Assembly (NCBI GenBank): GCA_002162095.1
Contig: CP021424.1
Coordinates: 1,674,001-1,738,000, forward strand
Direction of reading: 5' to 3'
Origin: Armatimonadetes bacterium Uphvl-Ar2
GTDB taxonomy: Bacteria > Armatimonadota > Fimbriimonadia > Fimbriimonadales > Fimbriimonadaceae
DNA length: 64,000 bases
Shown piece after piece: positions 31,109 to 44,794 of this stretch. A program made the translations under genes and the position numbers. The number at the start of each line of letters is the position of its first letter. The first letter of the stretch is position 1. Under the pieces are notes generated by a model, which searched no databases, was not told where the DNA came from, and saw only the letters and a program-made list of their open reading frames with translations.

Positions 31109-31363
31109 ATGACAAGGATGATGCAGGGTGCCCTGGTGGCGGTGGCCATTGTAATGGGCATTGGAGCCAGCTATGGCCGCTGGGAAAATGTGAAGGCCGA
31201 GCGCCGCGCCACCCAGCAAACTCGCGCCGAATTTAAGGAGTACCAGGCGGACCGTGTGCGCCTGACCCAAATGCGTGCGCGCACAGAGAATCCGATCCAA
31301 CGAGAACGTTTGGCCCGCGAGCGGGGATACATTCCGCGCGGCGAAACGTTAATGACGGAGTGA
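31109..31363 (+). CDS. Small single-pass protein, septum-formation-initiator (FtsB/DivIC)-like
   Basis: 84 residues: a single N-terminal membrane helix (ALVAVAIVMGIGASYGRW), a heptad-like charged stretch, and the ending ENPIQRERLARERGYIPRGE. This ending resembles the FtsB/DivIC pattern of NP-x3-E-R-x-AR-E-x-x-G-x-x-x-P-GE. Such proteins are part of the division septum complex. Start chosen at 31109 because AGGAGGGG lies ten bases upstream. The coiled coil is short, so the assignment is tentative. Its stop overlaps the next gene's GTG start. Confidence 0.6.
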   Translation: MTRMMQGALVAVAIVMGIGASYGRWENVKAERRATQQTRAEFKEYQADRVRLTQMRARTENPIQRERLARERGYIPRGETLMTE

Positions 31364-32028
31364 TTGCTGCGCTTTTCGCCTTGATGGTCGCCGCGCCGCC
31401 GCTGGAGTATCAGTGGCCGGCCGGGCGAGCGCAATCCTACGCCGTGACCGTGGCGTGGGGGGAAGGCGATGACCAAGAGACCACCCGCGAGCGGTGGGTG
31501 CTGCGCGTGGTGGAGCCTTCCTCGGCGGAGCAAAGCGCCTTGTTGAGCTGGACGCGGCAATTGCTGGCCCTCGAAGTCGGAGGCGTGCGAGTGCCGCTGG
31601 AGAGCGAGAATGCCCTGACCCTGACCGAGCGCCGCGATGCGCGCGGCCGCGTGAGTGAGCGGCAACCTTATCCGAATGAGCCGCTGGCTTATGGCCGACT
31701 GTTGCGGTTTTTGGATGTGGAACTGCCGGGGCGGGAAGTGGCCCCGGGGGGAGTGTGGGAGTATGCAGTACCGGCGGATGATGTGATGGGGGCGCTGGAG
31801 TGGCGGTATGCGGTGGTGGATGTGACGGCGGAGCGCGTGACGGTGCGCGGGGAAGCGCGGCTTGAAGGGGCGGTGGTGGCGACGGCGACCTGGGAATTGG
31901 AACCGGCGACGGGCTGGGCGCGGCGCAGCACCGTGCGCGCCGAGGGGCTGGTGATGCCGGGGGATGAAGAAGGCCAGCCAATGCCCGTGACGGTGCGGCT
32001 GGAAGCCGTGTCTGCACCGAAGCTGTAA
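31360..32028 (+). CDS. Secreted hypothetical protein, beta-rich
   Basis: 222 residues starting at a GTG that overlaps the preceding stop (GTGA). A short hydrophobic start (IAALFALMVAAPP) suggests export. The rest is a beta-strand-like lipocalin or DUF-type pattern (LSLRVVEP-like, GVWEYAVPADDV, MPVTVRLEAV). I do not recognise a family. The last bases (GAAGCTGTAACCCC) and the following 100 bases match the end of the third B gene of the cassette array, so the repeated DNA begins within this gene's 3' end. Confidence 0.6.
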   Translation: MIAALFALMVAAPPLEYQWPAGRAQSYAVTVAWGEGDDQETTRERWVLRVVEPSSAEQSALLSWTRQLLALEVGGVRVPLESENALTLTERRDARGRVSERQPYPNEPLAYGRLLRFLDVELPGREVAPGGVWEYAVPADDVMGALEWRYAVVDVTAERVTVRGEARLEGAVVATATWELEPATGWARRSTVRAEGLVMPGDEEGQPMPVTVRLEAVSAPKL

Positions 32029-32198
32029 CCCCGGGCGGGGCAGGCGCGTCTGCAAGGCAGATTGCGGTGAGAAGTGCAATTTTGGGGGAAAGGATTGACC
32101 TTTTACATCGAACTGTCCACACTAAGCGCATGAGAGGCTGGTCAGTCTGGCTTTTGGTGTTGACCTTGGTGGGCTGTGTGAGCCTGGGGCTCGCGCAG
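32018..32198 (+). repeat. Cassette-array repeat, left boundary copy (promoter plus A signal peptide only)
   Basis: Shares with the later copies the stop-codon region GAAGCTGTAACCCC, the leader TCTGC-AAG-GCAGA, the ATTGCG/TGCAAT pair, the TTGAC box and the first 23 codons of the A gene (MRGWSVWLL...LAQ). It lacks the B-gene part found in the internal copies and so marks the left edge of the duplicated block. Confidence 0.8.
32095..32129 (+). promoter_or_regulatory. Promoter of A1, apparently leaderless
   Basis: TTGACC (32095-32100), 17-base spacer, CACACT (32118-32123), then 6 bases to the ATG. The -10 is a poor match to consensus, but its place is conserved in all four copies. With normal spacing, transcription would start at or next to the ATG. 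No Shine-Dalgarno sequence exists. Upstream lie a TCTGC-AAG-GCAGA mini-hairpin and ATTGCG-N8-TGCAAT (32061-32080). Confidence 0.5.
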
Positions 32199-33479
32199 CC
32201 CGGAGGGCCAGGTAGACCTGGTGGCTCCGGAGGTACGGAAGAGCAGAACTTCCCGGGGACGTGGCCGTTTTCCGGCAGGGCAACCGGATCACATGATGGT
32301 ATGTCATGGACGGTCATACTCAGAGCCAGTGTGAACTGTGTCTACAGTGTCAATGGAAGCGCGCCACGCTACATCTCAGGAGGCAATAACCACGTAAAAG
32401 TCGTTGGTTTTGAACCAAAATCAGTTCCTTCGGCCCTTGAGTTCAAGATTATCAAACTTGAGATGAAGATTGGGGGGAACCTCATCACACAATGGGCGCC
32501 GATGTTGCCTGCTCAACATGGCGATCCGAATCAGTACAAAGCTGTCCGATTCACATCGGCAATATTTGCCCATGACACAAATATTGTAGTTGAAGTGAAA
32601 GCAAGATTCCTAGTCCGCCGAACTGACGTGATCGGGAGTCAGTGGTCAGGGGAATTACAAGTTGTCGCAACTGAGACGGTTAGGGCCTACAACGTTGGCC
32701 TCAATTGGCAGACCTCGACAGACCAAGAAGGGGTAATCATGACCGCACCCCGGTCATACGCTGACCAGGCGCAGGAAGCAGGCGCTGGACAACGAACAAT
32801 CCTTGGCACCATGAATCATCGAGTGGAAATGCCTAGTCCGATGTCAGCCACCGCCGCACAAATTCTTCAGATATACATCGGTCGAGCCACCCTTTTGGTG
32901 CCAAACACGCATGGGGACATTGAAAAGTCCTACCTATTTGACAGTTATCAAAACGGAGCTTTATACGCGACAATGACTGCAAAGCGAGATGAGGCTGTAG
33001 CCAATGGCTTTCCCAAGGCAAACATGGCGCTGCTAATGGCCTCCTGGACGGGGCGACCATTGCATGATGTCCTGGCGGGTACGCCCGAGTTCGTAAATCT
33101 GGGTACGGGCGGAATCCTTTGGAGTCTTGCCTATGCCGACACGGCATCCGATGAAGTGTCAGCTTTGCCTCCCCATCGCCCGATCTCTGAACTGTATATT
33201 GAAGCCACGAGGCAAATGGCCGAGGGTCGCTTTGCGAATGAAATTCCGGCATTGTCCGAAGTTGCTTCAGGTTCCACCTATACGGGAGTGTATGCAAAGG
33301 ATCCCGAAAGTGACGCCTACTGGTGGATTCCGAGGAACCTTGAGTTCTTTGGCGATGGGAATCAACGTTTAGGGCACGTCTATATGGACCGCGAGCAACG
33401 AATGAACTTTGAAAACCGAAACGCGGATACAAGGTTGTGGTATCTGGTGCTTGACCCGAACGATCTGCGAGGCGAATGA
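32130..33479 (+). CDS. Cassette protein A1: secreted, caspase/gingipain (C25)-like fold, catalytic Cys replaced
   Basis: 449 residues. The signal peptide MRGWSVWLL...GLAQ has both a lipobox-like LVGC (C16) and a possible signal peptidase I site after GLA. A Gly/Pro linker (PGGPGRPGGSGG) follows. A conserved beta-rich domain (EFKIIKLEMKIGG) precedes the putative catalytic region: TLLVPNTHG (H261), and about 43 residues later LLMASWTG, where other family members have GCFS; the expected Cys is S305. After it come GTGGILWSLAY and EFFGDGNQRLGHVYM, like the GDP motif late in C25 peptidases. This copy may therefore be an inactive paralogue. The fold is inferred, not shown. The stop overlaps the B1 start. 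Confidence 0.75.
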   Translation: MRGWSVWLLVLTLVGCVSLGLAQPGGPGRPGGSGGTEEQNFPGTWPFSGRATGSHDGMSWTVILRASVNCVYSVNGSAPRYISGGNNHVKVVGFEPKSVPSALEFKIIKLEMKIGGNLITQWAPMLPAQHGDPNQYKAVRFTSAIFAHDTNIVVEVKARFLVRRTDVIGSQWSGELQVVATETVRAYNVGLNWQTSTDQEGVIMTAPRSYADQAQEAGAGQRTILGTMNHRVEMPSPMSATAAQILQIYIGRATLLVPNTHGDIEKSYLFDSYQNGALYATMTAKRDEAVANGFPKANMALLMASWTGRPLHDVLAGTPEFVNLGTGGILWSLAYADTASDEVSALPPHRPISELYIEATRQMAEGRFANEIPALSEVASGSTYTGVYAKDPESDAYWWIPRNLEFFGDGNQRLGHVYMDREQRMNFENRNADTRLWYLVLDPNDLRGE

Positions 33480-34663
33480 TGACGAGTTTTTTGTTACTTA
33501 CGGCCTTGGTCAGTTCTGGCGAACCAGGCGTAAGCCCGGACCTCGAGCGTATAGACGGCATTGCAGATCGCCTGCTAAGATGGTACGGCATTGAGGCAGG
33601 GTTAGGCAGCCCCCGGGAATTGGATACAGGTCCGTACCGCGCTATGATGCCTAGGATATTCGGACCGGAGGGAATGAGTCGTATCGAGCCGAGCCCGGAG
33701 TGGAAGTCGTTTGCCAGAAGTTCGAAGATGACCTTTGCGTCAGGAGAGGCTGTGTACCAAGACCTCATGTACTCTTGGAACGTCAATAGGCCATTTCTGA
33801 GAACAGTTAGTGTGGGGTTATTGAACGATCCTGACCGCCGCCACAACATGCAGGATCCGAAGTCGTGGCGGTTTGAGGACCTGGATGCCGCTCGGGGCCA
33901 TGCCTGGAGTGTGGTGGATATGCTGCAGGTTTACGGCAAGTCGTGGGACATAGTTCTTTTTAACGAAAACTCACGATATGAAGATCCAACCCCTTCCTAC
34001 CAGTTCGGTGTGAACTGGAACGGCTTCGTCGGCATCTGGGGGTTTGGCTTCGTCGTCCACCGCACCACCGGCCTGATCTCGAATCTGAGCTTCCAGGGTC
34101 CGTTGCTGGATGAGCCGCCGCAAGGCGAGCCCATGGAGGAGGCGGACGCCAAGTACCTGGCCAACAACGAGGTGCGCCGGCACATCTTCAAGCCCCTGAT
34201 GCTGGTGGGAAGCCGCAAGATATTGAGCCCCTACAACCCGGTGGACGCGGAGGGCAATGTGCGCTTCCTCGCCGTGCCGGTCTACGAGTTCCAATACGTT
34301 GAGCTGACGGAAGACGGGCAGAGAAATCCGGAAGGAGGTCGCTACCTTGCTTCGGTGGACGCCATTAGCCAGAAGGTACTGGGCGTCAACCTGATTGAAG
34401 GCAGTGCGGGCGTGCTGCGCAACCCGGCCCCCTTGCCCGCGTTTACGTTCAACGTGGCCTACGGGGAACTCCAACTGCGCGAACGGAAGGTGAACCTGCT
34501 GGCTTGCACCCCCCTCACCAAGCTGACGGCCAAGCCGGACCGCACGGGCTGGTACAGCCAGGGCGACTTCCTTTTCCCCGTGGCCTACAACGAAGCCACC
34601 GGCGAAATGGAGATCCGCACCCCGGACCAAGTGCGCTACTACCGCCTGCCACCCACGCCCTGA
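33476..34663 (+). CDS. Cassette protein B1: partner of A1, possible PepSY/YcdB-like repeats
   Basis: 395 residues, start overlapping the A1 stop (ATGATGA), so the pair is translationally coupled. A short hydrophobic N-terminus (SFLLLTALVSS) suggests export. Residues up to about 120 are specific to this copy; from RRHNMQDPKSWRFED onward the protein is nearly identical in all four copies. Two segments end in strand-TG-strand patterns (FGFVVHRTTGLISNLSF and RYLASVDAISQKVLGVNLI) that resemble PepSY/YcdB-type repeats, often found in peptidase propeptides; this is a weak inference. No catalytic motif is visible. Ends LPPTP because a 30-bp insertion supplies an early TGA. Confidence 0.75.
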   Translation: MMTSFLLLTALVSSGEPGVSPDLERIDGIADRLLRWYGIEAGLGSPRELDTGPYRAMMPRIFGPEGMSRIEPSPEWKSFARSSKMTFASGEAVYQDLMYSWNVNRPFLRTVSVGLLNDPDRRHNMQDPKSWRFEDLDAARGHAWSVVDMLQVYGKSWDIVLFNENSRYEDPTPSYQFGVNWNGFVGIWGFGFVVHRTTGLISNLSFQGPLLDEPPQGEPMEEADAKYLANNEVRRHIFKPLMLVGSRKILSPYNPVDAEGNVRFLAVPVYEFQYVELTEDGQRNPEGGRYLASVDAISQKVLGVNLIEGSAGVLRNPAPLPAFTFNVAYGELQLRERKVNLLACTPLTKLTAKPDRTGWYSQGDFLFPVAYNEATGEMEIRTPDQVRYYRLPPTP

Positions 34664-34665
34664 GG

Positions 34666-34690
34666 GGGCGGGCACCTTCTGTTCCCGCCC
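34666..34690 (+). terminator. GC hairpin after B1, within a 30-bp insertion
   Basis: GGGCGGG / CCCGCCC with an 11-base loop just after the B1 TGA, identical after B2 and absent after B3 and B4. No T-tract follows, so it may reduce read-through or stabilise the mRNA end. Confidence 0.4.
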
Positions 34691-34768
34691 GCGAAGATGT
34701 AACCCGGGGCGAGGGAGGCGCGTCTGCAAGGCAGATTGCAGTAAGAAGTGCAATTTTCGGGGAAAGGA

Positions 34769-34804
34769 TTGACTTTTTTTTTCAGACCTGTCCAAACTAA
34801 GCGC
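34769..34804 (+). promoter_or_regulatory. Promoter of A2 with T9 tract
   Basis: TTGACT (34769-34774), spacer of 18 including a run of nine T (34774-34782), CAAACT (34793-34798), 6 bases to the ATG. Upstream inverted repeat ATTGCA-N8-TGCAAT (34735-34754) may be an operator, and TCTGC-AAG-GCAGA precedes it. Confidence 0.5.
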
Positions 34805-36088
34805 ATGAGAGGCTGGTCAGTCTGGCTTTTGATGTTGACTATGGTGGGGTGTGTGAGCCTGGGGCTCGCGCAACCAAGCCCGCCGGGCGTCCGGACGTTC
34901 GTGAACACGGCATCCGGTGAACATAACGGCGTGAATTGGAATGTCGAGTTAACCGGTGAGATGGACTATGTGACCACAACAGGCCTTATCTCAGGTGGCA
35001 ACAATCATGTGCGGGTGGTGGAATTTGAGTACGGCTCAAGTCCGAATTCCCTTGCATTCGAGATCGTGAGGCTCGAAATGAAGATCGGTGGGATAAGCGT
35101 TGACCAATGGGCTCCAGCTGACCCGGATGACTGGAAGGACATCAACAAGTACTTTCCCGTTCGTTTTGCTTCGGCTAAATTTGCCCATGGGGCCGCCGTC
35201 CCGGTCGAGATCAAGGCTAGATTCAAAGTTCGGCTGGCGAATCCAATCAACAGCCCGTGGTCTCCCGAAGCCGAAGTCACGGCGACTACGAGTGTGACGG
35301 CTCACAACGTTGCGCTGAACTGGCAGACGACTGTAAACGCGTATGGTAATACTGTCACTGGAATCAACAGCTATCCCGGTCAAGCACAAGCTGCCGGCAA
35401 CGGCCAGCGTCCTCTTCTTGGCTCAATGAAGCACCGTGTGGATATGCCAAATCCCACAAATGCTACAGCTTCCGGAATTCTACAATTTTGGATGGGTCAG
35501 ACGACATTTTTGGTTCCCAATACGCATGGTTGGGCACAGGGGCTTTGGGACAGTACGACTAACGACGTTTTCTTGACTGCAATGGCCGCAGAAAGGTCGG
35601 CTGCTGTGGCGGCGGGTTATCCTCGGGCCAACATGGCATTGGTGATGGGGTGCTTTTCCGATCAGCCTCTCGCAAGCCATTTGTTGGGAAGTCCGGAGTT
35701 TGCAAATTTTGGAACTCATGGTCTACTCTGGAGCCTGAGCTACTCGAACTCGGCGCCAGCGACCGCGTCGGATGTTCATCCTACACGGCCAACATCTTCA
35801 CTATATATTTCGGCAGTCAAACTGATGGCCGATGGTGCGTTCGCGGATGAAGTACCTGATCGCACAGAAACTCGCACGAAGTCGACCTTTACTGAAAACT
35901 TGGAGTGGGATGAACTAACCGAGGAGGGGTGGTGGATTCCAATTAACCTGCAACTGCATGGTAGCGAGACTCAGCGTCCGAATCATGTATTTATGGACGA
36001 TGTGCAGCGACAGCACTTCTATAACATTCAAGCGAGTACAGCACTTTGGTACTTGGTTGTCGACCCAACGAATTTGCGAGGGCAATAA
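34805..36088 (+). CDS. Cassette protein A2: secreted, putative C25/caspase-like cysteine enzyme
   Basis: 427 residues. Signal peptide as in A1 with LVGC-type C16, but the linker is short (QPSPPGVRTF) and lacks the Gly-rich run. The first 170 residues are very close to A3. The putative dyad is H241 in TTFLVPNTHG and C283 in MALVMGCFSDQPL, separated by 42 residues, followed by FGTHGLLWSLSY, which in CHAT/C25 proteins corresponds to the strand after the Cys loop. The late motif is degraded (LQLHGSETQRPNHVFM). Substrate unknown. TAATG overlap with B2. Confidence 0.75.
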   Translation: MRGWSVWLLMLTMVGCVSLGLAQPSPPGVRTFVNTASGEHNGVNWNVELTGEMDYVTTTGLISGGNNHVRVVEFEYGSSPNSLAFEIVRLEMKIGGISVDQWAPADPDDWKDINKYFPVRFASAKFAHGAAVPVEIKARFKVRLANPINSPWSPEAEVTATTSVTAHNVALNWQTTVNAYGNTVTGINSYPGQAQAAGNGQRPLLGSMKHRVDMPNPTNATASGILQFWMGQTTFLVPNTHGWAQGLWDSTTNDVFLTAMAAERSAAVAAGYPRANMALVMGCFSDQPLASHLLGSPEFANFGTHGLLWSLSYSNSAPATASDVHPTRPTSSLYISAVKLMADGAFADEVPDRTETRTKSTFTENLEWDELTEEGWWIPINLQLHGSETQRPNHVFMDDVQRQHFYNIQASTALWYLVVDPTNLRGQ

Positions 36089-37272
36089 TGACAAGTCTTA
36101 CACTAGTGGCAGTTTTGGCGCTTGGCCAAGCCGAGATTGCGAGTTCTGATATCGAACGGATTGATGCCATGTCTAGCCGAATGCTGACTTGGTATGGTTC
36201 AGAAGCTGGTCTGGGGAAGTTGCGCAACTTCGAACAGGGGCCATTTCGAGCCCTAGAGCCACAGATTTTTGGTTCTGAGGGAATGAGTCATGGTTCACCA
36301 AGCGTTGAATGGCAGCTGTTTGCCCGTAGCTCGTTGAGCAAGTTTGACACTGGGGAGCCAGTCTTCCAACAGATGATCTGTTCATGGGTTGGCACTAGGC
36401 CGTACCTGAGGTCGATGCGAACTGGATCGCCAAATGATTTTGACCGGCGCCACAACATGCAAGACCCCAAATCGTGGCGATTTGAGGACCTCGAAGCCGC
36501 CCGGGGCCATGCCTGGAGCGTCGTGGATATGCTTCAGGTCTACGACAAGTCGTGGGACATCGTGCTTTTCAATGAAAGCGCACGCTACGAGAACCCGATG
36601 GCCTCGTACCAATTTGGTGTGAACTGGAAGGGCTTCTCTGGCATCTGGGGGTTTGGCTTCGTCGTCCACCGCACCACCGGCCTGATCTCGAATCTGAGCT
36701 TCCAAGGTCCGTTGCTGGATGAGCCGCCCCATGGCGAGCCCATGGAGGAAGCGGACGCCAAGTACCTGGCCAACAATGAGGTGCGCCGGCACATCTTCAA
36801 GCCGCTGATGCTGGTGGGCAGCCGCAAGATTCTGAGCCCCTACAATCCGGTGGACGCCGAGGGCAATGTGCGATTCCTCGCGGTGCCCGTTTACGAATTC
36901 CAGTACGTTGAGCTGACGGAAGACGGACTGAGAAATCCGGAAGGAGATCGCTACCTCGCCTCGGTGGACGCCATCAGCCAGAAGGTGCTGGGCGTCAACC
37001 TGATCGAAGGCAGTGCGGGTGTGCTGCGCAACCCGGCCCCCTTGCCCGCGTTTACGTTCAACATGGCGTACGGGGAGATCCACCTGCGCGAACGGAAGGT
37101 GAACCTGCTGGCCTGCACCCCCCTCACCAAGCTGACGGCCAAGCCGGACCGCACGGGCTGGTACAGCCAGGGCGACTTCCTTTTCCCCGTGGCCTACAAC
37201 GAAGCCACCGGCGAAATGGAGATCCGCACCCCGGACCAAGTGCGCTACTACCGCCTGCCACCCACGCCCTGA
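36088..37272 (+). CDS. Cassette protein B2: partner of A2
   Basis: 394 residues starting MTSLTLVAVLALGQAEIA, a short export signal. The N-terminal third (for example SSRMLTWYGSEAGLGKLRNF) is related to but distinct from the other copies; from RRHNMQDPKSWRFEDLEAARG the sequence is almost invariant. At positions corresponding to residues 165-180 it reads RYENPMASYQFGVNW like B3, whereas B1 and B4 read RYEDPTPSYQFGVNW, so the copies are patchworks. The end LPPTP and the 30-bp hairpin insertion are shared with B1. Likely secreted with A2. Confidence 0.75.
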   Translation: MTSLTLVAVLALGQAEIASSDIERIDAMSSRMLTWYGSEAGLGKLRNFEQGPFRALEPQIFGSEGMSHGSPSVEWQLFARSSLSKFDTGEPVFQQMICSWVGTRPYLRSMRTGSPNDFDRRHNMQDPKSWRFEDLEAARGHAWSVVDMLQVYDKSWDIVLFNESARYENPMASYQFGVNWKGFSGIWGFGFVVHRTTGLISNLSFQGPLLDEPPHGEPMEEADAKYLANNEVRRHIFKPLMLVGSRKILSPYNPVDAEGNVRFLAVPVYEFQYVELTEDGLRNPEGDRYLASVDAISQKVLGVNLIEGSAGVLRNPAPLPAFTFNMAYGEIHLRERKVNLLACTPLTKLTAKPDRTGWYSQGDFLFPVAYNEATGEMEIRTPDQVRYYRLPPTP

Positions 37273-37274
37273 GG

Positions 37275-37299
37275 GGGCGGGCACCTTCTGTTCCCGCCC
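37275..37299 (+). terminator. GC hairpin after B2, within a 30-bp insertion
   Basis: Identical to the hairpin after B1 (GGGCGGG / CCCGCCC). No T-tract follows. Confidence 0.4.
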
Positions 37300-37377
37300 G
37301 CGAAGATGTAACCCGGGGCGAGGGAGGCGCGTCTGCAAGGCAGATTGCAGTGAGAAGTGCAATTTTCGGGGAAAGGA

Positions 37378-37415
37378 TTGACTTTTTTTTTTTCAGACCT
37401 GTCCACACTAGGCGT
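37378..37415 (+). promoter_or_regulatory. Promoter of A3 with T11 tract
   Basis: TTGACT (37378-37383), spacer of 20 including a run of eleven T (37383-37393), CACACT (37404-37409), 6 bases to the ATG. The spacer is longer than optimal for a housekeeping sigma factor, so this copy may be weak compared with A1, A2 and A4. Confidence 0.5.
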
Positions 37416-38702
37416 ATGAGAGGCTGGTCAGTCTGGCTTTTGATGTTGACCCTGGTGGGGTGTGTGAGCCTTGGGCTCGCGCAACCAAGCCCGCCGGGCG
37501 TCCGGACGTTCGTGAACACGGCATCCGGCGACCATAACGGCGTGAGTTGGAATGTCGAGTTGACCGGTGAAATGGACTATGTGACCACCACCGGTCTTAT
37601 CTCGGGCGGCAACAACCATGTGCGCGTGGTGAACTTTGCAACTGGGTCAAGTCCGAATTCCCTTGCATTCGAGATCGTGAAGCTCGAGATGAAGATCGGT
37701 GGGATCAGCGTTGACCAATGGGCGCCAACTGACTCTGCTGATTGGAAAGACATCAACAAGTACTTTCCCGTTCGTTTTGCTTCGGCTAAATTTGCGCACG
37801 GGGCTGCAGTGCCAGTCGAAATCAAGGCTAGATTTAAGGTGAGGCTTGCAGATCCGATTAACAGTCCGTGGTCTCCCGAAGCCGAGGTCACGGCTACCAC
37901 AAGCGCGACAGCGCATAATGTGGCGCTAAACTGGCAGACGACAGTCGATGACGAAGGATTGCCCGCCTTCGGCATCAACAGTTATCCTGGGCAAGCCCAA
38001 GCAGCTGGAACTGGTCAAAGATCTCGTTTGTCCGCAATGAAGCATCGAGTCGACATGCCAAACCCGACAAGCGCAACGGCCGCAGGAATCCTTGACCCTT
38101 GGATGCCGCAAACGACTTTCCTTGTGCCAAACACTCATGGTTGGTCAGCTGGACTTTGGGATAGTGCGTCAGGGATGGTGCAGTTTACTGGAATGGCCGC
38201 TGCAAGATCGGGAGGGGTTGCTAATGGGTATCCCCGCGCAAATATGGCTTTGATCATGTCTTGCTTCTCAAATGTTGCGCTTGGAGGGACGATATCTGGC
38301 ACTCCGGAGTTCGCAAATTTCGGTACTCCAGGGATACTCTGGAGCCTTAGTTACGTGCATACTGCTCCTGTCGTTGCTTCCAATATTCATCCGACTAGGC
38401 CGACTTCAAGAATTTATACTCAAGCCGTAAAGCTTATGGGTGATGGCTATTTCGCTGATGAAGTGCGTGATGATAGTGAAGCGTTGGCAGGATCAACTAT
38501 AACTCAAAATCTTTCCTACTTTCCGGGTAGTAATACCGGATGGTGGATACCAGCTGACCTCGAACTATATGGCGATTCCAATCAACGCCCAATGCATGTG
38601 TATATGCTAGAGGCTGAGCGAAACTTTATGGCTAACGCGAACTTGAGTACCGCACTGTGGTACCTAGTTATTGAGCCTGGAGACTATAGAGGTCAATCAT
38701 GA
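37416..38702 (+). CDS. Cassette protein A3: secreted, putative C25/caspase-like cysteine enzyme
   Basis: 428 residues, closest to A2 in the first 170 residues and then diverging. Signal peptide with C16. Putative dyad H241 (TTFLVPNTHG) and C283 (MALIMSCFSNVAL), then FGTPGILWSLSY and LELYGDSNQRPMHVYM. The part of the gene after about 38,000 is AT-richer: the 60 bases at 38401-38460 are 42% GC, against 68% at 39721-39780 in the conserved B3 end. Stop overlaps the B3 start (ATGA). Confidence 0.75.
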   Translation: MRGWSVWLLMLTLVGCVSLGLAQPSPPGVRTFVNTASGDHNGVSWNVELTGEMDYVTTTGLISGGNNHVRVVNFATGSSPNSLAFEIVKLEMKIGGISVDQWAPTDSADWKDINKYFPVRFASAKFAHGAAVPVEIKARFKVRLADPINSPWSPEAEVTATTSATAHNVALNWQTTVDDEGLPAFGINSYPGQAQAAGTGQRSRLSAMKHRVDMPNPTSATAAGILDPWMPQTTFLVPNTHGWSAGLWDSASGMVQFTGMAAARSGGVANGYPRANMALIMSCFSNVALGGTISGTPEFANFGTPGILWSLSYVHTAPVVASNIHPTRPTSRIYTQAVKLMGDGYFADEVRDDSEALAGSTITQNLSYFPGSNTGWWIPADLELYGDSNQRPMHVYMLEAERNFMANANLSTALWYLVIEPGDYRGQS

Positions 38703-39892
38703 CAAGCCTGCTTCTTTTCACATCATTTCTTGTTGCTGGTGATTCCGGACTTCAAGCGGACCTTGATCGAACGAATGCAATCGCCACTCGCATGTTGGAG
38801 TGGTACGGCACAGAGTCTGGTGGCGGGTCACTGCTTGGCTTGGAGCGAGGACCGTACCGCGCTCACGTTCCCAGAATCTATGGGCCTGAAGGGATGAGTT
38901 TTGCTGAGCCTAGCAGAGACTGGCAGAGGTTTGCTGTTAGTAGCCAGGGGTCATTTGACCGGGGAGAGCCGGTCTTTCAACAGCAGTTATTCTCTTGGGT
39001 CGAAGATCGTCCTTTCATGACATCCATTTCAACAGGCAATCCTGGAAAGGTTGACCTGCGCCACAATATGCAAGACCCGAAGTCGTGGCGGTTTGAGAGC
39101 CTGGATGCGGCCCGGGGCCATGCCTGGAGCGTGGTTGACATGCTTCAAGTCTACGACAAGTCGTGGGACATCGTGCTCTTCAATGAAAGCGCAAGCTACG
39201 AGAACCCGATGGCCTCCTACCAGTTCGGCGTGAACTGGCGTGGCTTTGTAGGTATCTGGGGGTTTGCCTTCGTCGTCCACCGCACCACCGGCCTCATCTC
39301 CAACCTAGGCTTCCAAGGTCCGTTGCTGGATGAGCCGCCCCATGGCGAGCCCATGGAGGAAGCGGACGCCAAGTACCTGGCCAACAATGAGGTACGTCGG
39401 CACATCTTCAAACCCCTAATGCTGGTGGGCAGCCGCAAGATTTTGAGCCCGTACAATCCGGTGGACGCCGAGGGCAATGTGCGATTCCTCGCGGTGCCCG
39501 TTTACGAATTCCAGTACGTTGTACTGACAGAAGATGGACAAAGGACAACGGAAGGAGATCGCTACCTCGCCACGGTGGACGCCATTAGCCAGAAGGTACT
39601 GGGCGTCAACCTGATCGAAGGCAGTGCGGGTGTGCTGCGCAACCCGGCCCCCTTGCCCGCGTTTACGTTCAACATGGCCTACGGGGAGATCCACCTGCGC
39701 GAACGGAAGGTGAACCTGCTGGCCTGCACCCCGCTCACCAAGATGACGGACAAGCCGGACCGCACGGGCTGGTACAGCCAAGGCGACTTCCTCTTCCCCG
39801 TGGCCTACAACGAAGCCACCGGCGAAATGGAGATCCGCACCCCTGACCAAGTGCGCTACTACCGCCTGCCTCCCACGCCCGCGAAGCTGTAA
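38699..39892 (+). CDS. Cassette protein B3: partner of A3
   Basis: 397 residues starting MTSLLLFTSFLVAGDSG, a likely export signal. Copy-specific to about residue 120 (MLEWYGTESGGGSLLGLERG), then the conserved block from LRHNMQDPKSWRFESLDAARG. It ends LPPTPAKL followed by TAACCCC and lacks the 30-bp insertion seen after B1 and B2; this is probably the ancestral end, because the same GAAGCTGTAACCCC stands before A1. No enzymatic motif is seen. Confidence 0.75.
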   Translation: MTSLLLFTSFLVAGDSGLQADLDRTNAIATRMLEWYGTESGGGSLLGLERGPYRAHVPRIYGPEGMSFAEPSRDWQRFAVSSQGSFDRGEPVFQQQLFSWVEDRPFMTSISTGNPGKVDLRHNMQDPKSWRFESLDAARGHAWSVVDMLQVYDKSWDIVLFNESASYENPMASYQFGVNWRGFVGIWGFAFVVHRTTGLISNLGFQGPLLDEPPHGEPMEEADAKYLANNEVRRHIFKPLMLVGSRKILSPYNPVDAEGNVRFLAVPVYEFQYVVLTEDGQRTTEGDRYLATVDAISQKVLGVNLIEGSAGVLRNPAPLPAFTFNMAYGEIHLRERKVNLLACTPLTKMTDKPDRTGWYSQGDFLFPVAYNEATGEMEIRTPDQVRYYRLPPTPAKL

Positions 39893-40063
39893 CCCCAGGC
39901 GGGGGCGGGGCGTCTGCAAGGCAGATTGCGGGGAGAAGTGCAATTTTGGGGGAAAGGATTGACTTTTTTTTTCAGACCTGTCCACACTAGGTGTATGAGA
40001 GGCTGGTCAGTCTGGCTTTTGATGTTGACCCTGGTGGGGTGTGTGAGCCTGGGGCTCGCGCAG
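39059..40063 (+). repeat. Cassette-array repeat copy 3 (B3 3' part, intergenic region, A4 signal peptide)
   Basis: Third internal copy. Its intergenic part lacks the 30-bp hairpin insertion and is closer to the region before A1 (AATTTTGGGGGAAAGG). Confidence 0.85.
39959..39994 (+). promoter_or_regulatory. Promoter of A4 with T9 tract
   Basis: TTGACT (39959-39964), spacer of 18 including a run of nine T (39964-39972), CACACT (39983-39988), 6 bases to the ATG. Confidence 0.5.
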
Positions 40064-41314
40064 CCCGGAGGGCCGGGTGGATCCGGAGGAACTGGTGGTC
40101 AGAACTTGCCTGGAGTCAAGACTTTTCAAGCAACTGTTTCAGGGATCCACGATGGGATTGGGTGGTCTGTTGATCTAATCGCGGAATTGGATTACGAAAC
40201 CGATCCTGGAGGATTGATTTCTGGTGGAAAAAACCATGTGCGTCTCGTCGACTTTAAAACAACATCTGACCCAGAGGCACTCGAGTTTGAGATCACGAAG
40301 TTAGAGATGAAGATTGGTGGGAACGAAATCACTCAATGGCCACCATCGAACCCAGCCGATAAGAAGGACATTACCAAGTACTTTCCAGTAAGATTTACAT
40401 CTGCAAAATTTGCACATGCATCGGCCGTAAATATAGTAATCAAAGCTACGTTTAAAGTTCGGCGAGTGACAATCATCAACAGCCCCTGGTCTGGGGAGTT
40501 TGAAATCTCAGCCACTAGGACGGTTACTGCTCACAACGTAGCGCTGAACTGGCAAACAACTGTAGATGATCAAGGATTATCGCAAACACATCCTAACAGC
40601 TATCCAAAGCAGGCCCAGTTTGCTGGCAGCAATCAGCGGCCGATTCTTGCCAACATGAAGCACCAGGTCGACATGCCCAATCCTACGACCGCAACTGCAG
40701 GCAATATTACCCAGAGTTGGATGACGAAGACAACTTTCCTCGTTCCAAATACGCACGGTTGGCCTCAGGGTTTGTGGGATAGCCAAACGGGAACTATCAC
40801 GCTATCGGACATGTTGGCCGCGCGCGCCGCAGGAGTTGCAGCTGGGTGGCCACGTGCTAACATGGCTCTTGTGATGGGATGTTTCTCCGACCAACCCTTA
40901 GGAGGAACTCTCGTTGGCACTCCTGAGTTTGCAAATTTCGGTACTCATGGCGTCCTTTGGAGCCTAAGTTATGCCAGGACTGTACCGAATGCGGAGTCAA
41001 GTAACCGCCCTACAAGGCCAACATCAGCTCTGTATATAGAGGCAGTTAGGCTAATGGCAGATGGTTACTTTGCCGACCAGATTCCCGGGCAGTCGGAAGT
41101 TGTCTCAGGTTCTACATACACACGAAACATTTGGTATGATGCGGACTCTGACGAAGGGTCGTGGATACCGATAAATCTTTCACTGTTTGGTGATCCGAAT
41201 CAACGACTGAAACACGTCTACATGAATGCAACCGAACGCATGTTTGTTTACCCCAACAACAACAAGTCGCTGTGGTATCTCGTTGTCGAGCCTGGTAACT
41301 ATAGAGGAAACTAA
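39995..41314 (+). CDS. Cassette protein A4: secreted, putative C25/caspase-like cysteine enzyme
   Basis: 439 residues. Signal peptide with LVGC (C16), then a Gly-rich linker PGGPGGSGGTGGQ like that of A1. This copy shows the proposed fold most clearly: H254 in TTFLVPNTHGW, a short TGTITLSDMLAAR helix, C296 in MALVMGCFSDQPL, then FGTHGVLWSLSYART, RPTSALYIEAVRLMADG and a good late motif LSLFGDPNQRLKHVYM. This order (HG, C, GV-SL, lfGDP) is that of C25 gingipain/CHAT-type cysteine peptidases. Cargo or substrate is unknown. Stop overlaps the B4 start (TAATG). Confidence 0.78.
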   Translation: MRGWSVWLLMLTLVGCVSLGLAQPGGPGGSGGTGGQNLPGVKTFQATVSGIHDGIGWSVDLIAELDYETDPGGLISGGKNHVRLVDFKTTSDPEALEFEITKLEMKIGGNEITQWPPSNPADKKDITKYFPVRFTSAKFAHASAVNIVIKATFKVRRVTIINSPWSGEFEISATRTVTAHNVALNWQTTVDDQGLSQTHPNSYPKQAQFAGSNQRPILANMKHQVDMPNPTTATAGNITQSWMTKTTFLVPNTHGWPQGLWDSQTGTITLSDMLAARAAGVAAGWPRANMALVMGCFSDQPLGGTLVGTPEFANFGTHGVLWSLSYARTVPNAESSNRPTRPTSALYIEAVRLMADGYFADQIPGQSEVVSGSTYTRNIWYDADSDEGSWIPINLSLFGDPNQRLKHVYMNATERMFVYPNNNKSLWYLVVEPGNYRGN

Positions 41315-42513
41315 TGGTCTGTGCATTAATATTTAGCTCGATCTTCTTATCGCCTTCTAGCGCTTGGGATCAGGATATTGAGCGAGCCAAAAGCATCTCG
41401 AGTCGGCTCATGACCTGGTATGGGAGTGAGGCTGGGTTAGGTTTGCCAAAGCAACTTGGGAAAACTCAGTTCGAGGCAATGTATCCGGCAGGCCTTGGCA
41501 GTGCGGGATTGAGGTTCGACCAGCCAGCAAGGGATTGGAAGAGTTTCACAATCAATCGACTTGTGTCGTACGATAGAGGCGAGCCAGTTATTGTGCGCGC
41601 TTGGCTGATTTCGTATGATACACGCGCATCGTTGGATTCCGTGACTGTGGGCGAGCCATTTAGATTCGATCTGCGCCACAACTTGCAAGATCCTAAGTCG
41701 TGGCGATTTGAGGACCTCGAAGCCGCCCGGGGCCACGCCTGGAGCGTCGTGGATATGCTGCAGGTCTACGACAAGTCATGGGACATCGTTCTATTCAACG
41801 AGAGCTCACGATATGAAGATCCAACCCCTTCGTACCAGTTCGGTGTGAACTGGAACGGCTTCGTTGGCATTTGGGGCTTTGGTTTCATGGTCCACCGCAC
41901 TACTGGTCTTATCTCAAATCTGAGCTTCCAAGGTCCGTTGCTGGATGAGCCGCCCCACGGCGAGCCCATGGAGGAGGCGGACGCCAAATACCTGGCCAAC
42001 AACGAGGTACGCCGCCACATCTTCAAACCGCTGATGCTGGTGGGCAGCCGCAAGATTTTGAGCCCGTACAACCCGGTGGACGCCGACGGCAATGTGCGCT
42101 TCCTCGCGGTGCCGGTCTACGAATTCCAATACGTTGAGCTGACTGAAGGCGGACAGAGGAATCCGGAAGGAAGTCGCTACCTCGCCTCGGTGGATGCCAT
42201 CAGCCAGAAGGTGCTGGGCGTCAACCTGATTGAAGGCAGTGCGGGTGTGCTGCGCAACCCAGCCCCCTTGCCCGCGTTTACATTCAACGTGGCCTACGGA
42301 GAAATCCACCTGCGCGAGCGGAAGGTGAACCTGCTGGCCTGCACACCGCTCACCAAGCTTACGGAAAAGCCGGACCGCACGGGCTGGTATAGCCAGGGCG
42401 ACTTCCTCTTCCCCGTGGCCTACAACGAGGCCACCGGCGAAATGGAGATCCGCACCCCGGGCCAAGTGCGCTACTATCGTCTGCCACCCGGAACGCAAGC
42501 TCAAGCCCGCTAA
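41314..42513 (+). CDS. Cassette protein B4: partner of A4
   Basis: 399 residues. The start MVCALIFSSIFLSPSSAW is a likely signal peptide and differs from the MTS start of B1-B3. The N-terminal third is the most divergent of the four (RLMTWYGSEAGLGLPKQLGK then FEAMYPAGLGSAG). The conserved block starts at LRHNLQDPKSWRFEDLEAARG; at RYEDPTPSYQFGVNWNGF it matches B1 rather than B2/B3. The C-terminus ends LPPGTQAQAR, unlike the others. This is the last cassette; no promoter-signal-peptide unit follows, only the ComM-type gene 50 bases on. Confidence 0.75.
   Translation: MVCALIFSSIFLSPSSAWDQDIERAKSISSRLMTWYGSEAGLGLPKQLGKTQFEAMYPAGLGSAGLRFDQPARDWKSFTINRLVSYDRGEPVIVRAWLISYDTRASLDSVTVGEPFRFDLRHNLQDPKSWRFEDLEAARGHAWSVVDMLQVYDKSWDIVLFNESSRYEDPTPSYQFGVNWNGFVGIWGFGFMVHRTTGLISNLSFQGPLLDEPPHGEPMEEADAKYLANNEVRRHIFKPLMLVGSRKILSPYNPVDADGNVRFLAVPVYEFQYVELTEGGQRNPEGSRYLASVDAISQKVLGVNLIEGSAGVLRNPAPLPAFTFNVAYGEIHLRERKVNLLACTPLTKLTEKPDRTGWYSQGDFLFPVAYNEATGEMEIRTPGQVRYYRLPPGTQAQAR
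41674..42513 (+). repeat. Cassette-array repeat copy 4, right boundary (B4 3' part only)
   Basis: Conserved block from CGCCACAAC to the region of the B4 stop. The intergenic promoter and A signal peptide are missing, so this is the right edge of the duplicated block. Confidence 0.8.
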
Positions 42514-42562: not shown

Positions 42563-44071
42563 ATGGTCGCCCAAGCGGAAGCCGCCACCCTGGTGGGAAT
42601 CGAGGCGGTGCCCGTCATGGTCGAAGTGGACCTGCGCCGGGGTGCCCCGGATTTCCACCTCGTCGGCCTGCCCGATAAGGCGGTGATGGAGTGCCGCGAG
42701 CGCGTCCGCAGCGCCATCCAGAACTCCGACCTCACCTTCCCCAATGGCAAGGTGGTGTGCAATCTCGCCCCCGGGGACGTGCGCAAGGAGGGCACCTCGC
42801 TCGATCTCCCCATTGCGCTCACCATCCTGGCCGTGAGCGGGCAAGTGCCGGCCAGCGAGCTCGCCCACACCGTCATCTTGGGCGAGCTGGGCCTGGATGG
42901 GCGGGTGCGCCCGGTGAATGGCTGCCTCAACGCCGCCATTGCTGCCAGCCAGCGCGGCGTGCGGCGCCTCATCGTCCCTAAGGAGGACGCCCCCGAGGCC
43001 GCCGTGGTGCCAGGGCTGGACGTCTACGGTGTGGACACCCTGCTGGCGGCGGTGGAGATCCTGAACGGCGACCTGAGCCACCAGCCGGTGGATGCCGCCC
43101 TGGCCACGGCCGGTGAAGACACGCAGTGGCCGGTGGACTTTAGTGATGTGAAGGGCCAGAGCCACGCCCTGCGCGCCCTGGAAGTGGCGGCGGCGGGCAA
43201 CCACAACGTGCTGATGACCGGCCCCCCGGGGAGCGGCAAAACCATGCTGGCCCGGCGGCTACCCACCATTCTCCCGCCCCTGGGGCTCGAGGAAGCGGTG
43301 GAGGTCACCCGGGTTTACAGCGCGGCGGGCGAGCGCAACGGCCGCAACGGGCTGGTGTGGGCGCGGCCTTTCCGTTCGCCGCACCACACCACGTCTTACG
43401 CGGCGCTGGTAGGCGGCGGCAAGACTCCCAAGCCGGGCGAGGTGTCGCTGGCGCACTTTGGGGTGCTGTTCTTGGACGAGATGCCGGAGTTCGACCGGGA
43501 CGTGCTGGAGGCGCTGCGGCAACCGCTGGAAGACGGCATTGTCACGGTGAGCCGGGTGAGCGCGACGCAGGAATTCCCGGCCCGGTGCCTGCTGGTGGGG
43601 GCGATGAATCCGTGCCCGTGCGGTTTCCGGGGGTACCCCGAGGCCAAGTGCGTGGGGGCTTCGGCCTGCGAGCGGTACGCCGGGCGGCTGAGCGGTCCGC
43701 TGATGGACCGCATTGATCTGCACATCACGGTGCCGCGCCTGCGGCCGAATGAGCTGACCGATGCCCCGCCGGGGGAGACCAGCGCCGTGATTCGGGCGCG
43801 GGTGCAGAGTGCGCGGGCGCGCCAGACGGCGCGGCTGGGGCCTGGGGGCACCAACGGGCACATGTCGCCGCGCCAAGTGCGGGAGACGGCGGAGCTGGAT
43901 GAGACGGAACGAGCGTTTATGACGAAGGCGGCCTCGCGGCTGAGCCTGAGCGGGCGGGGTTACGACCGGATATTGAAGGTGGCGCGCACTCTGGCGGATT
44001 TGGCCGATGAGGACCGGATTCGGGTGGAGCACCTGGCCGAGGCCGTGCAGTTCCGCGCGCCGCAGGAGTAA
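42563..44071 (+). CDS. comM: YifB/ComM-type Mg chelatase-like AAA+ ATPase
   Basis: A 502-residue protein with the three usual parts: an N-terminal Lon-protease-like domain (ATLVGIEAVPVMVEVDLRRG, LVGLPDKAVMECRERV), a central AAA+ domain with Walker A GPPGSGKT near residue 220 and Walker B VLFLDEMPEF, and a C-terminal Mg-chelatase-like domain with a Cys cluster (NPCPCGFRGYPEAKC). ComM promotes branch migration during natural transformation; family members occur in most bacteria. It follows the cassette array by 50 bases. Whether recombination of imported DNA has shaped the array is an open idea. Confidence 0.93.
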   Translation: MVAQAEAATLVGIEAVPVMVEVDLRRGAPDFHLVGLPDKAVMECRERVRSAIQNSDLTFPNGKVVCNLAPGDVRKEGTSLDLPIALTILAVSGQVPASELAHTVILGELGLDGRVRPVNGCLNAAIAASQRGVRRLIVPKEDAPEAAVVPGLDVYGVDTLLAAVEILNGDLSHQPVDAALATAGEDTQWPVDFSDVKGQSHALRALEVAAAGNHNVLMTGPPGSGKTMLARRLPTILPPLGLEEAVEVTRVYSAAGERNGRNGLVWARPFRSPHHTTSYAALVGGGKTPKPGEVSLAHFGVLFLDEMPEFDRDVLEALRQPLEDGIVTVSRVSATQEFPARCLLVGAMNPCPCGFRGYPEAKCVGASACERYAGRLSGPLMDRIDLHITVPRLRPNELTDAPPGETSAVIRARVQSARARQTARLGPGGTNGHMSPRQVRETAELDETERAFMTKAASRLSLSGRGYDRILKVARTLADLADEDRIRVEHLAEAVQFRAPQE

Positions 44072-44170: not shown

Positions 44171-44794
44171 TTACTTTGCCTTGCGTCGGCGGATGGCGGC
44201 GAGGGCGCCAAGAGCCAAAACCGAAAGGGTCGCGGGCTCCGGAACCGGCGTCGCCGTTCCTTGGATGATGTGATCGAGCTGCACCCAGTTAGCGATCCCC
44301 GCCGAGCTTGCCGTGAAAGTCGCCGTCGTGATCGTCACGGTGGAGTCGGCCCACCCGATGAACTGCTCACCGCCGGTGACATCAACTACCGTATTGGCGC
44401 CGTTGCTGAGGTTCAGGGTGACTTGACCCGGGATGAAGCCACCGTCGACGTCGGTGTTGGCAACACGAGCGCCAAAGGCCGTGGTGGGGTTGCCCGTCAG
44501 GGTCAACGTGATCGGGTCATCGGCGACGTTTGTCGACAGTGCGCCAATGTTGGACCAGAGACCAAGGGACGCCGCCGCATCAAAGCCAAAGCCGTTCCCG
44601 CCCGGGGCAGACCAAGTTGTTTGAGAGCCATCGAGCGGGTTGCCGAAGCTTGTGAAGTTGTTGAAATCTTCCGTGTAGTTGGGGCCAACCGTGGCCGCGA
44701 GGAAAGCTGCCTCGCTCGTATACCAAGTTGCGTTTGCAGAAGCAACCAACATGGCACTTGCAGCAAGTGCCAAAATTTTATTAGTGGATTTCAT
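44171..44794 (-). CDS. PEP-CTERM sorting-domain protein
   Basis: 207 residues: signal peptide MKSTNKILALAASAMLVASANA, a beta-rich extracellular domain (about residues 25-180; EDFNNFTSFGNPL and SNGANTVVDVTGG), and a C-terminal sorting tail VPEPATLS-hydrophobic helix-RRRKAK. PEP-CTERM proteins are cut and sorted by an exosortase, usually in bacteria with exopolysaccharide. No exosortase is in this window. Single Cys-free mature domain. It has its own terminator and lies alone on the minus strand. The 270 bases upstream to the tRNA hold no other recognised feature. Confidence 0.93.
   Translation of the reverse strand: MKSTNKILALAASAMLVASANATWYTSEAAFLAATVGPNYTEDFNNFTSFGNPLDGSQTTWSAPGGNGFGFDAAASLGLWSNIGALSTNVADDPITLTLTGNPTTAFGARVANTDVDGGFIPGQVTLNLSNGANTVVDVTGGEQFIGWADSTVTITTATFTASSAGIANWVQLDHIIQGTATPVPEPATLSVLALGALAAIRRRKAK

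What the first reader, a model, noticed from the sequence alone, without database searches (positions are those of the whole stretch)
32030..42513. Four tandem copies of an overlapping two-gene secreted-protein cassette
Seen directly: A1-B1, A2-B2, A3-B3 and A4-B4 are in the same orientation, A genes all start with the same MRGWSVWLL signal peptide, B starts overlap A stops by 1-4 bases, and A starts are spaced 2675, 2611 and 2578 bases. No transposase, integrase or repeat-borne mobile function is present. I know of no named system with this layout. It could be a locus for producing alternative surface or secreted enzymes with their partners.
Basis: seen in the sequence. Interest (0 to 1): 0.92.

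Follow-up and report, generated by a model that had tools for sequence, protein, structure and literature searches.

The report
Tandem caspase-like protein and partner cassettes
This bacterium carries four side-by-side copies of an undescribed gene pair, predicted to encode a secreted caspase-like protein and a secreted partner that resembles protease propeptides, in which the business ends differ sharply between copies while the joints between copies are kept nearly identical.

Summary
In detail: four same-strand A-B cassettes at 32130-42513, with A and B overlapping by 1 or 4 bases. They do not look like an assembly artefact: the variable parts are strongly diverged, and a sister species (G001) carries a deletion scar of the same array. 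A and B match no Pfam, NCBIfam or PDB sequence. A is a predicted secreted two-domain protein with a beta-sandwich and a caspase/CHAT-like domain; its His-Cys pair is kept in nearly all relatives, but A1 has Ser for Cys. B looks like a repeated PepSY-type protein, the fold of protease propeptides. All 16 A loci examined outside the array have a B-like ORF at the A stop, and tandem A-B arrays occur in other genera, so the pair is a family-wide unit in Armatimonadota. The main new point is the mosaic: A's body and B's first ~118 codons are synonymously saturated between copies, whereas the hinge (B C-terminus, upstream region, A signal peptide) is homogenised. A similar mosaic recurs in another genus and at a second locus of this genome. 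Best reading: protease-like effector plus propeptide-like inhibitor/chaperone cassettes, diversified around shared hinges. Proteolysis and inhibition are untested.

The parts
32030..32205 (+). hinge 0: upstream region with candidate promoter plus A1 signal-peptide codons
   Evidence: copy of the sequence repeated before A2-A4; 86% identical to the query 37300-37420; TTGACC-17-CACACT-6-ATG
32130..33479 (+). A1: signal peptide, beta-sandwich domain, caspase-like domain; presumed catalytic Cys replaced by Ser (TLLVPNTHG ... NMALLMASWTG)
33476..34663 (+). B1: PepSY-like partner; overlaps A1 by 4 nt
32206..33829 (+). variable module 1 (A1 body + B1 codons 1-118)
   Evidence: saturated pS, pN 0.3-0.5, GC about 0.52
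33830..34880 (+). hinge 1 (B1 C-terminus, intergenic, A2 signal peptide), homogenised
34805..36088 (+). A2: caspase-like, His241 and Cys283 intact
36088..37272 (+). B2; overlaps A2 by 1 nt
34881..36441 (+). variable module 2
36442..37491 (+). hinge 2
37416..38702 (+). A3: caspase-like, His and Cys intact; first ~150 codons closer to A2, catalytic part diverged
38699..39892 (+). B3; overlaps A3 by 4 nt
37492..39052 (+). variable module 3
39053..40070 (+). hinge 3
39995..41314 (+). A4: caspase-like, His and Cys intact
41314..42513 (+). B4; overlaps A4 by 1 nt; the tail from about 42393 is what survives in G001
40071..41670 (+). variable module 4
41671..42513 (+). terminal constant segment (B4 C-terminus)

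Best explanation
Each cassette encodes an exported caspase-like protein A and, overlapping it and so probably translationally coupled, an exported PepSY-type partner B that folds, restrains or protects against A, much as propeptides and dedicated inhibitors do for other secreted proteases. B's variable N-terminal segment is the most likely contact with its own A, and its constant C-terminal repeats the shared scaffold. The array grew by tandem duplication within the genus. Homologous recombination (gene conversion or unequal crossing over) keeps the hinges alike and in register, while the middle (A body plus B N-terminus) diverges, giving a small repertoire of specificities, one of them (A1) probably inactive or altered. 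Shown: array, overlap, family-wide pairing, conserved His/Cys columns, mosaic divergence, tandem arrays elsewhere, loss in G001. Inferred: proteolysis, inhibition/chaperoning by B, A-B contact, recombination as the cause of the mosaic, biological role.
For: Pairing: all 16 A loci examined outside the array have a 230-480 aa B-like ORF at the A stop (start -28 to +14, one at +104), and every B-profile hit in the own genome lies in an A locus. A: strand-THG / strand-C arrangement with His in 43 and Cys in 42 of 45 aligned rows; the AlphaFold2 model's N-domain is confident and its catalytic core fair; the best structural neighbours of the C-domain are SAVED-CHAT (Z 8.7), caspases (about 8.0-8.5) and MALT1 (8.3). 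B: the B-family profile's best PDB matches are M4 propeptides (pro-elastase, Mcp02; E 0.014-0.035), and relatives hit PepSY (best 1.1e-4) and DUF4901 (best 7.1e-6); the PepSY scores shown and most DUF4901 scores are below curated cut-offs. Mosaic: 4-fold-site differences 57-86% in A body and B-N versus 19-30% in B-C, Fisher p 4e-20 to 6e-14 for all six pairs. Similar mosaics elsewhere: G040's tandem pair (A codons 1-140 and last ~25 B codons alike, middle saturated) and the own second locus, whose two B's share only the last ~70 codons. Array A's plus G002's A form one clade (SH-aLRT 100, quick tree).
Against: No Pfam or NCBIfam hit for any window protein. The A model is weak beyond residue 282, Foldseek alone gave no match at E <= 0.001, and the VIA Z values are only just above the stated background. 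The B model failed (pLDDT 37). A1 lacks the Cys, as does truncated G002 A (Tyr). A and B-N give different nearest-copy patterns (A: 2-3 closest; B-N: copy 4 the outlier), so strict A-B co-divergence is not shown. Positive selection is not shown, because dS is saturated. The constant B C-terminus could also reflect purifying selection in part, though its low synonymous divergence argues for homogenisation.
Confidence: 0.55

Rival explanations
1. A is not a protease but a caspase-fold adhesin or surface-structure protein (or pseudoenzyme), and B is its periplasmic chaperone or anchor; copies diversify as surface antigens or recognition proteins.
For: A1 (Ser) and G002 A (Tyr) lack the Cys; a beta-sandwich N-domain; B's of G040 end in a transmembrane-like segment; constant ends with a variable middle are also seen in surface-variable proteins (general knowledge).
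Against: His and Cys are kept in essentially all other members across many genera despite very low overall identity; PepSY-like partners are best known from proteases and other lytic enzymes (general knowledge).
Confidence: 0.2
2. Effector-immunity array: A's are exported toxins against competitors and B's their cognate immunity proteins, with modules swapped by recombination at the hinges.
For: Paired, overlapping, variable A and B-N modules between constant hinges; lower-GC variable modules (0.49-0.53 versus 0.61 for the window); a similar mosaic at other loci.
Against: Array A's form one clade, so no imported modules are seen; no toxin or immunity profile match; A looks like a plain Sec-type exported protein; no PADLOC match beyond chance.
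Confidence: 0.15
3. Ordinary tandem paralogue expansion of nutrient-scavenging secreted enzymes; the mosaic is only the passive result of gene conversion fading where copies had already diverged.
For: Monophyletic copies, multi-copy A genes across the family, hinge homogenisation expected for tandem repeats.
Against: Does not by itself explain why variable segments cover the catalytic part of A plus adjoining B sequence, or why G040 breaks near the A interdomain linker; but it is compatible with the best explanation on enzyme function.
Confidence: 0.3
4. Assembly or duplication artefact.
For: Single assembly; reads were not available.
Against: Copies differ too much to be false duplicates; G001 carries an independent scar.
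Confidence: 0.02

Closest known systems
Bacteroides btp/bti clusters (C10 proteases with staphostatin-like inhibitors; PMC3462683)
   Same: Secreted cysteine proteases with transcriptionally coupled small partner genes a few bases away, clustered paralogues, and one member (BtpZ) that has lost the catalytic Cys, as A1 has.
   Different: Papain-fold proteases and small staphostatin-like inhibitors, not a predicted caspase-like fold with PepSY-like ~390 aa partners; in the passages read, no constant-hinge/variable-module pattern is described.
Staphopain-staphostatin and SpeB-Spi operons (as described in PMC3462683)
   Same: Secreted cysteine protease followed by its own inhibitor gene, co-transcribed.
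   Different: Different folds on both sides; those inhibitors are thought to act in the cytoplasm, whereas B-family proteins start with a predicted export signal.
SleB-YpeB operon of Bacillus (PMC6660665)
   Same: Exported lytic enzyme and a PepSY-repeat partner from one operon; YpeB's N-terminal part inhibits SleB in vitro while regions beyond the first PepSY domain are needed for stability and may form dimers, a precedent for B's variable-N/constant-C split.
   Different: SleB is a peptidoglycan-degrading enzyme, not caspase-like; spore-specific.
M4 metalloprotease propeptides (PepSY/FTP)
   Same: Best PDB profile matches of the B family; the chaperone/inhibitor role of propeptides is general knowledge.
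   Different: Propeptides are part of the protease chain and serve metalloproteases.
Caspase / CHAT / MALT1 (clan CD)
   Same: Predicted fold neighbours and His-Gly ... Cys order.
   Different: No sequence family match; exported, with an N-terminal beta-sandwich and a PepSY-like partner.

Membership tests
Clan CD (caspase-like) peptidases | caspase-haemoglobinase fold | tested here: inconclusive
   VIA-align Z about 8.0-8.7 to CHAT, caspases and MALT1; model weak after residue 282; Foldseek alone had no match at E <= 0.001
Clan CD (caspase-like) peptidases | His-Gly after one core strand and Cys after the next | tested here: met
   A2-A4: THG / MGC or MSC; 43/45 His and 42/45 Cys in the family. 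A1 has Ser.
Clan CD (caspase-like) peptidases | cysteine peptidase activity | not testable with these tools
   needs purified protein
Pfam C14, C25, CHAT families | match to the curated profile | tested here: not met
   no such hit for any A, window or relatives
PepSY (PF03413) | score above the Pfam cut-off | tested here: not met
   no hit in window B's; relatives up to 22.9 bits versus cut-off 24
PepSY-like proteins (fold level) | repeated PepSY-type alpha/beta units | tested here: inconclusive
   recurring V.VDA.TG.VL signature, weak PepSY/DUF4901 hits and M4 propeptide matches; B model unusable
Protease-inhibitor operon (staphopain/staphostatin type) | papain-fold protease plus staphostatin | tested here: not met
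   no papain or staphostatin profile match; A's fold neighbours listed are clan CD
Protease-inhibitor operon (staphopain/staphostatin type) | partner gene immediately downstream | tested here: met
   overlap in the array; 16/16 other A loci have a B-like ORF at the A stop; co-transcription itself not tested

The most novel reading that the evidence does not exclude
A dedicated diversification system: arrays of paired caspase-like effectors and cognate PepSY-like partners whose constant hinges (B C-terminus, upstream region, A signal peptide) guide in-frame recombination, so that modules of A body plus partner are gained, lost and diverged as units in many Armatimonadota.
Probability: 0.25. Interest if true: 0.85.

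Novelty: new variant of a known kind. Interest (0 to 1): 0.6.

Why it matters
It describes an unannotated, phylum-wide pair of secreted proteins in a poorly studied phylum, gives a testable function (caspase-like protein with a PepSY-like partner), and shows a repeating constant-end/variable-middle pattern that would be an unusual way for bacteria to diversify secreted effectors together with their partners. Bacterial caspase-like proteins are mostly discussed in cell death and phage defence; an exported, partnered branch would widen that picture.

Tried and rejected
Pfam, NCBIfam and PHROGs scans of the window A and B proteins, and a PADLOC scan of the A family: no meaningful match. PDB sequence search with A profiles: nothing. 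AlphaFold2 of B with 8 sequences: pLDDT 37, not used. A family-wide A profile was too diverse for the search for related loci; a narrower one gave only five named loci. Plasmids: no tblastn match to one family member. Lipoprotein reading of A (LVGC) not preferred: several family members share a Gln right after a signal peptidase I-like site (alignment). The standard sigma-70 promoter scan did not list the A upstream sites. Papers: one paper held both 'PepSY' and 'caspase-like', with one mention of each, and is about Leptospira cleavage of host junction proteins.

Full report
What is there. The window lies in a single-contig 2.63 Mb genome, 99.66% complete. Relatives found by name are Fimbriimonadaceae and other Armatimonadota MAGs. 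Between a small gene (31360-32028) and a comM/yifB-like gene (42563-44071) lie four A-B cassettes on the + strand. A's start with the same signal peptide and B's start inside or at the A stop (overlap 4, 1, 4, 1 nt). Copies share 52-74% (A) and 76-81% (B) identity with copy 2.

Reality of the array. The copies are too different to be false duplicates. A congener, G001, has flanks at 91-94% nucleotide identity and lacks the array, but retains a B tail of about 120 bp fused just after the stop of the upstream gene, with only a few bases of homology at the join (window 32035 to about 42393). The tail continues into B4-specific sequence, so the simplest reading is that the ancestor had the array, or at least its last cassette, and G001 lost it.

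The family. A matches no Pfam, NCBIfam or PDB entry by sequence. A profile of A found 29 of 85 family genomes and 42 of 291 phylum genomes. All 16 A loci examined outside the array have a B-like ORF starting between -28 and +14 nt of the A stop (one at +104 after a truncated A). In the own genome there are seven A-profile places: the four array copies, one at 2.29 Mb followed by two B's, one at 1.66 Mb followed by a B-like ORF, and a fragment at 1.46 Mb; the B profile hits only B's next to A's. Tandem A-B arrays occur in G040 and G123 (A-B-A-B), and G026 has three pairs within about 10 kb.

What A is. Across 45 aligned rows the motif strand-THG ... strand-C is near invariant (His 43, Cys 42; two of the rows look like wrong-frame ORFs), followed by a conserved GD...RL..VY near the end. 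The AlphaFold2 model of A2 has a confident N-terminal beta-sandwich (about residues 28-175) and a fair catalytic core, but poor confidence after residue 282. VIA-align places the C-domain nearest SAVED-CHAT, caspases and MALT1 (Z about 8.0-8.7) and the N-domain near arrestin-type beta-sandwiches; Foldseek alone was not significant. I conclude a secreted caspase-like protein, with moderate confidence. A1 has Ser at the Cys position; the truncated G002 A has Tyr.

What B is. B-family proteins carry a recurring V.VDA.TG.VL signature. Relatives score weakly against PepSY and DUF4901, and the family profile's best PDB matches are M4 propeptides. The structure prediction failed, so PepSY-like repeats are a sequence inference.

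The mosaic. Sliding synonymous divergence falls into two regimes. The A body and B codons 1-118 are mostly saturated (mean pS about 0.7-0.9, pN 0.2-0.5). The B C-terminus falls from pS about 0.5 to below 0.2 near its end with pN around 0.03, and the upstream region and A signal peptide are similarly close. Four-fold-site tests are significant for all six pairs (p <= 6e-14). Quartet patterns are clustered along the cassette more than in shuffles (p 2e-4), consistent with conversion between copies, for example copies 2-3 in the first ~150 codons of A. GC is 0.49-0.53 in variable modules and 0.60-0.62 in constant ones. Similar cases: in G040 the upstream region, A codons 1-140 and the last ~25 B codons are alike and the rest saturated; at the own 2.29 Mb locus the two B's share only the last ~70 codons; the G123 tandem pair is diverged throughout and shows no such pattern. 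In G040 the break falls near the A interdomain linker. The array A's plus G002's A form one clade in a quick tree (SH-aLRT 100; the careful search did not finish), so the modules look diverged in place rather than imported.

Mechanism. I think each cassette makes an exported caspase-like effector with its own propeptide-like partner, probably coupled in translation, and that recombination in the hinges lets whole modules be gained, lost or diverge while keeping genes in frame. Precedents: clustered btp/bti protease-inhibitor genes, including a member without the catalytic Cys, and YpeB, whose N-terminal part inhibits SleB while regions beyond its first PepSY domain serve stability. Proteolysis, inhibition and A-B contact are inferred, not shown.

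Limits. Read data, other strains with the array, and a co-fold were not available. Many of the comparison loci come from MAGs. Co-divergence of A with its own B is not demonstrated: A and B-N suggest different nearest copies.

Noticed in passing
window 32070-32129, 34745-34804, 37354-37415, 39935-39994: Upstream of each A: TTGACC/T, spacer of 17, 18, 20 or 18 nt, CACACT/CAAACT, 6 nt, ATG. The spacer differences lie in a poly-T run (9, 11, 9 in copies 2-4; 4 in copy 1). It could be a leaderless promoter with a length-variable T tract; the standard promoter scan did not list it.
   Followed up: partly
window 31360-32028 and 39880-39990: The end of the small upstream gene (GAAGCTGTAACCCC) and the end of B3 share sequence that runs into the hinge, so the upstream flank carries a hinge-like copy.
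   Followed up: no
L033 7893-9757: G002 (same genus) has one diverged A-B pair beside ribosomal protein genes, with A lacking its N-terminal domain and the Cys.
   Followed up: partly
L045 5284-7025: A of the MAG TGS_ARM4 appears frameshifted while its B ORF is intact.
   Followed up: no
window 44171-44794 (-): A short secreted protein with a PEP-CTERM-like tail (VPEPATLSVLALGALAAIRRRKAK).
   Followed up: no
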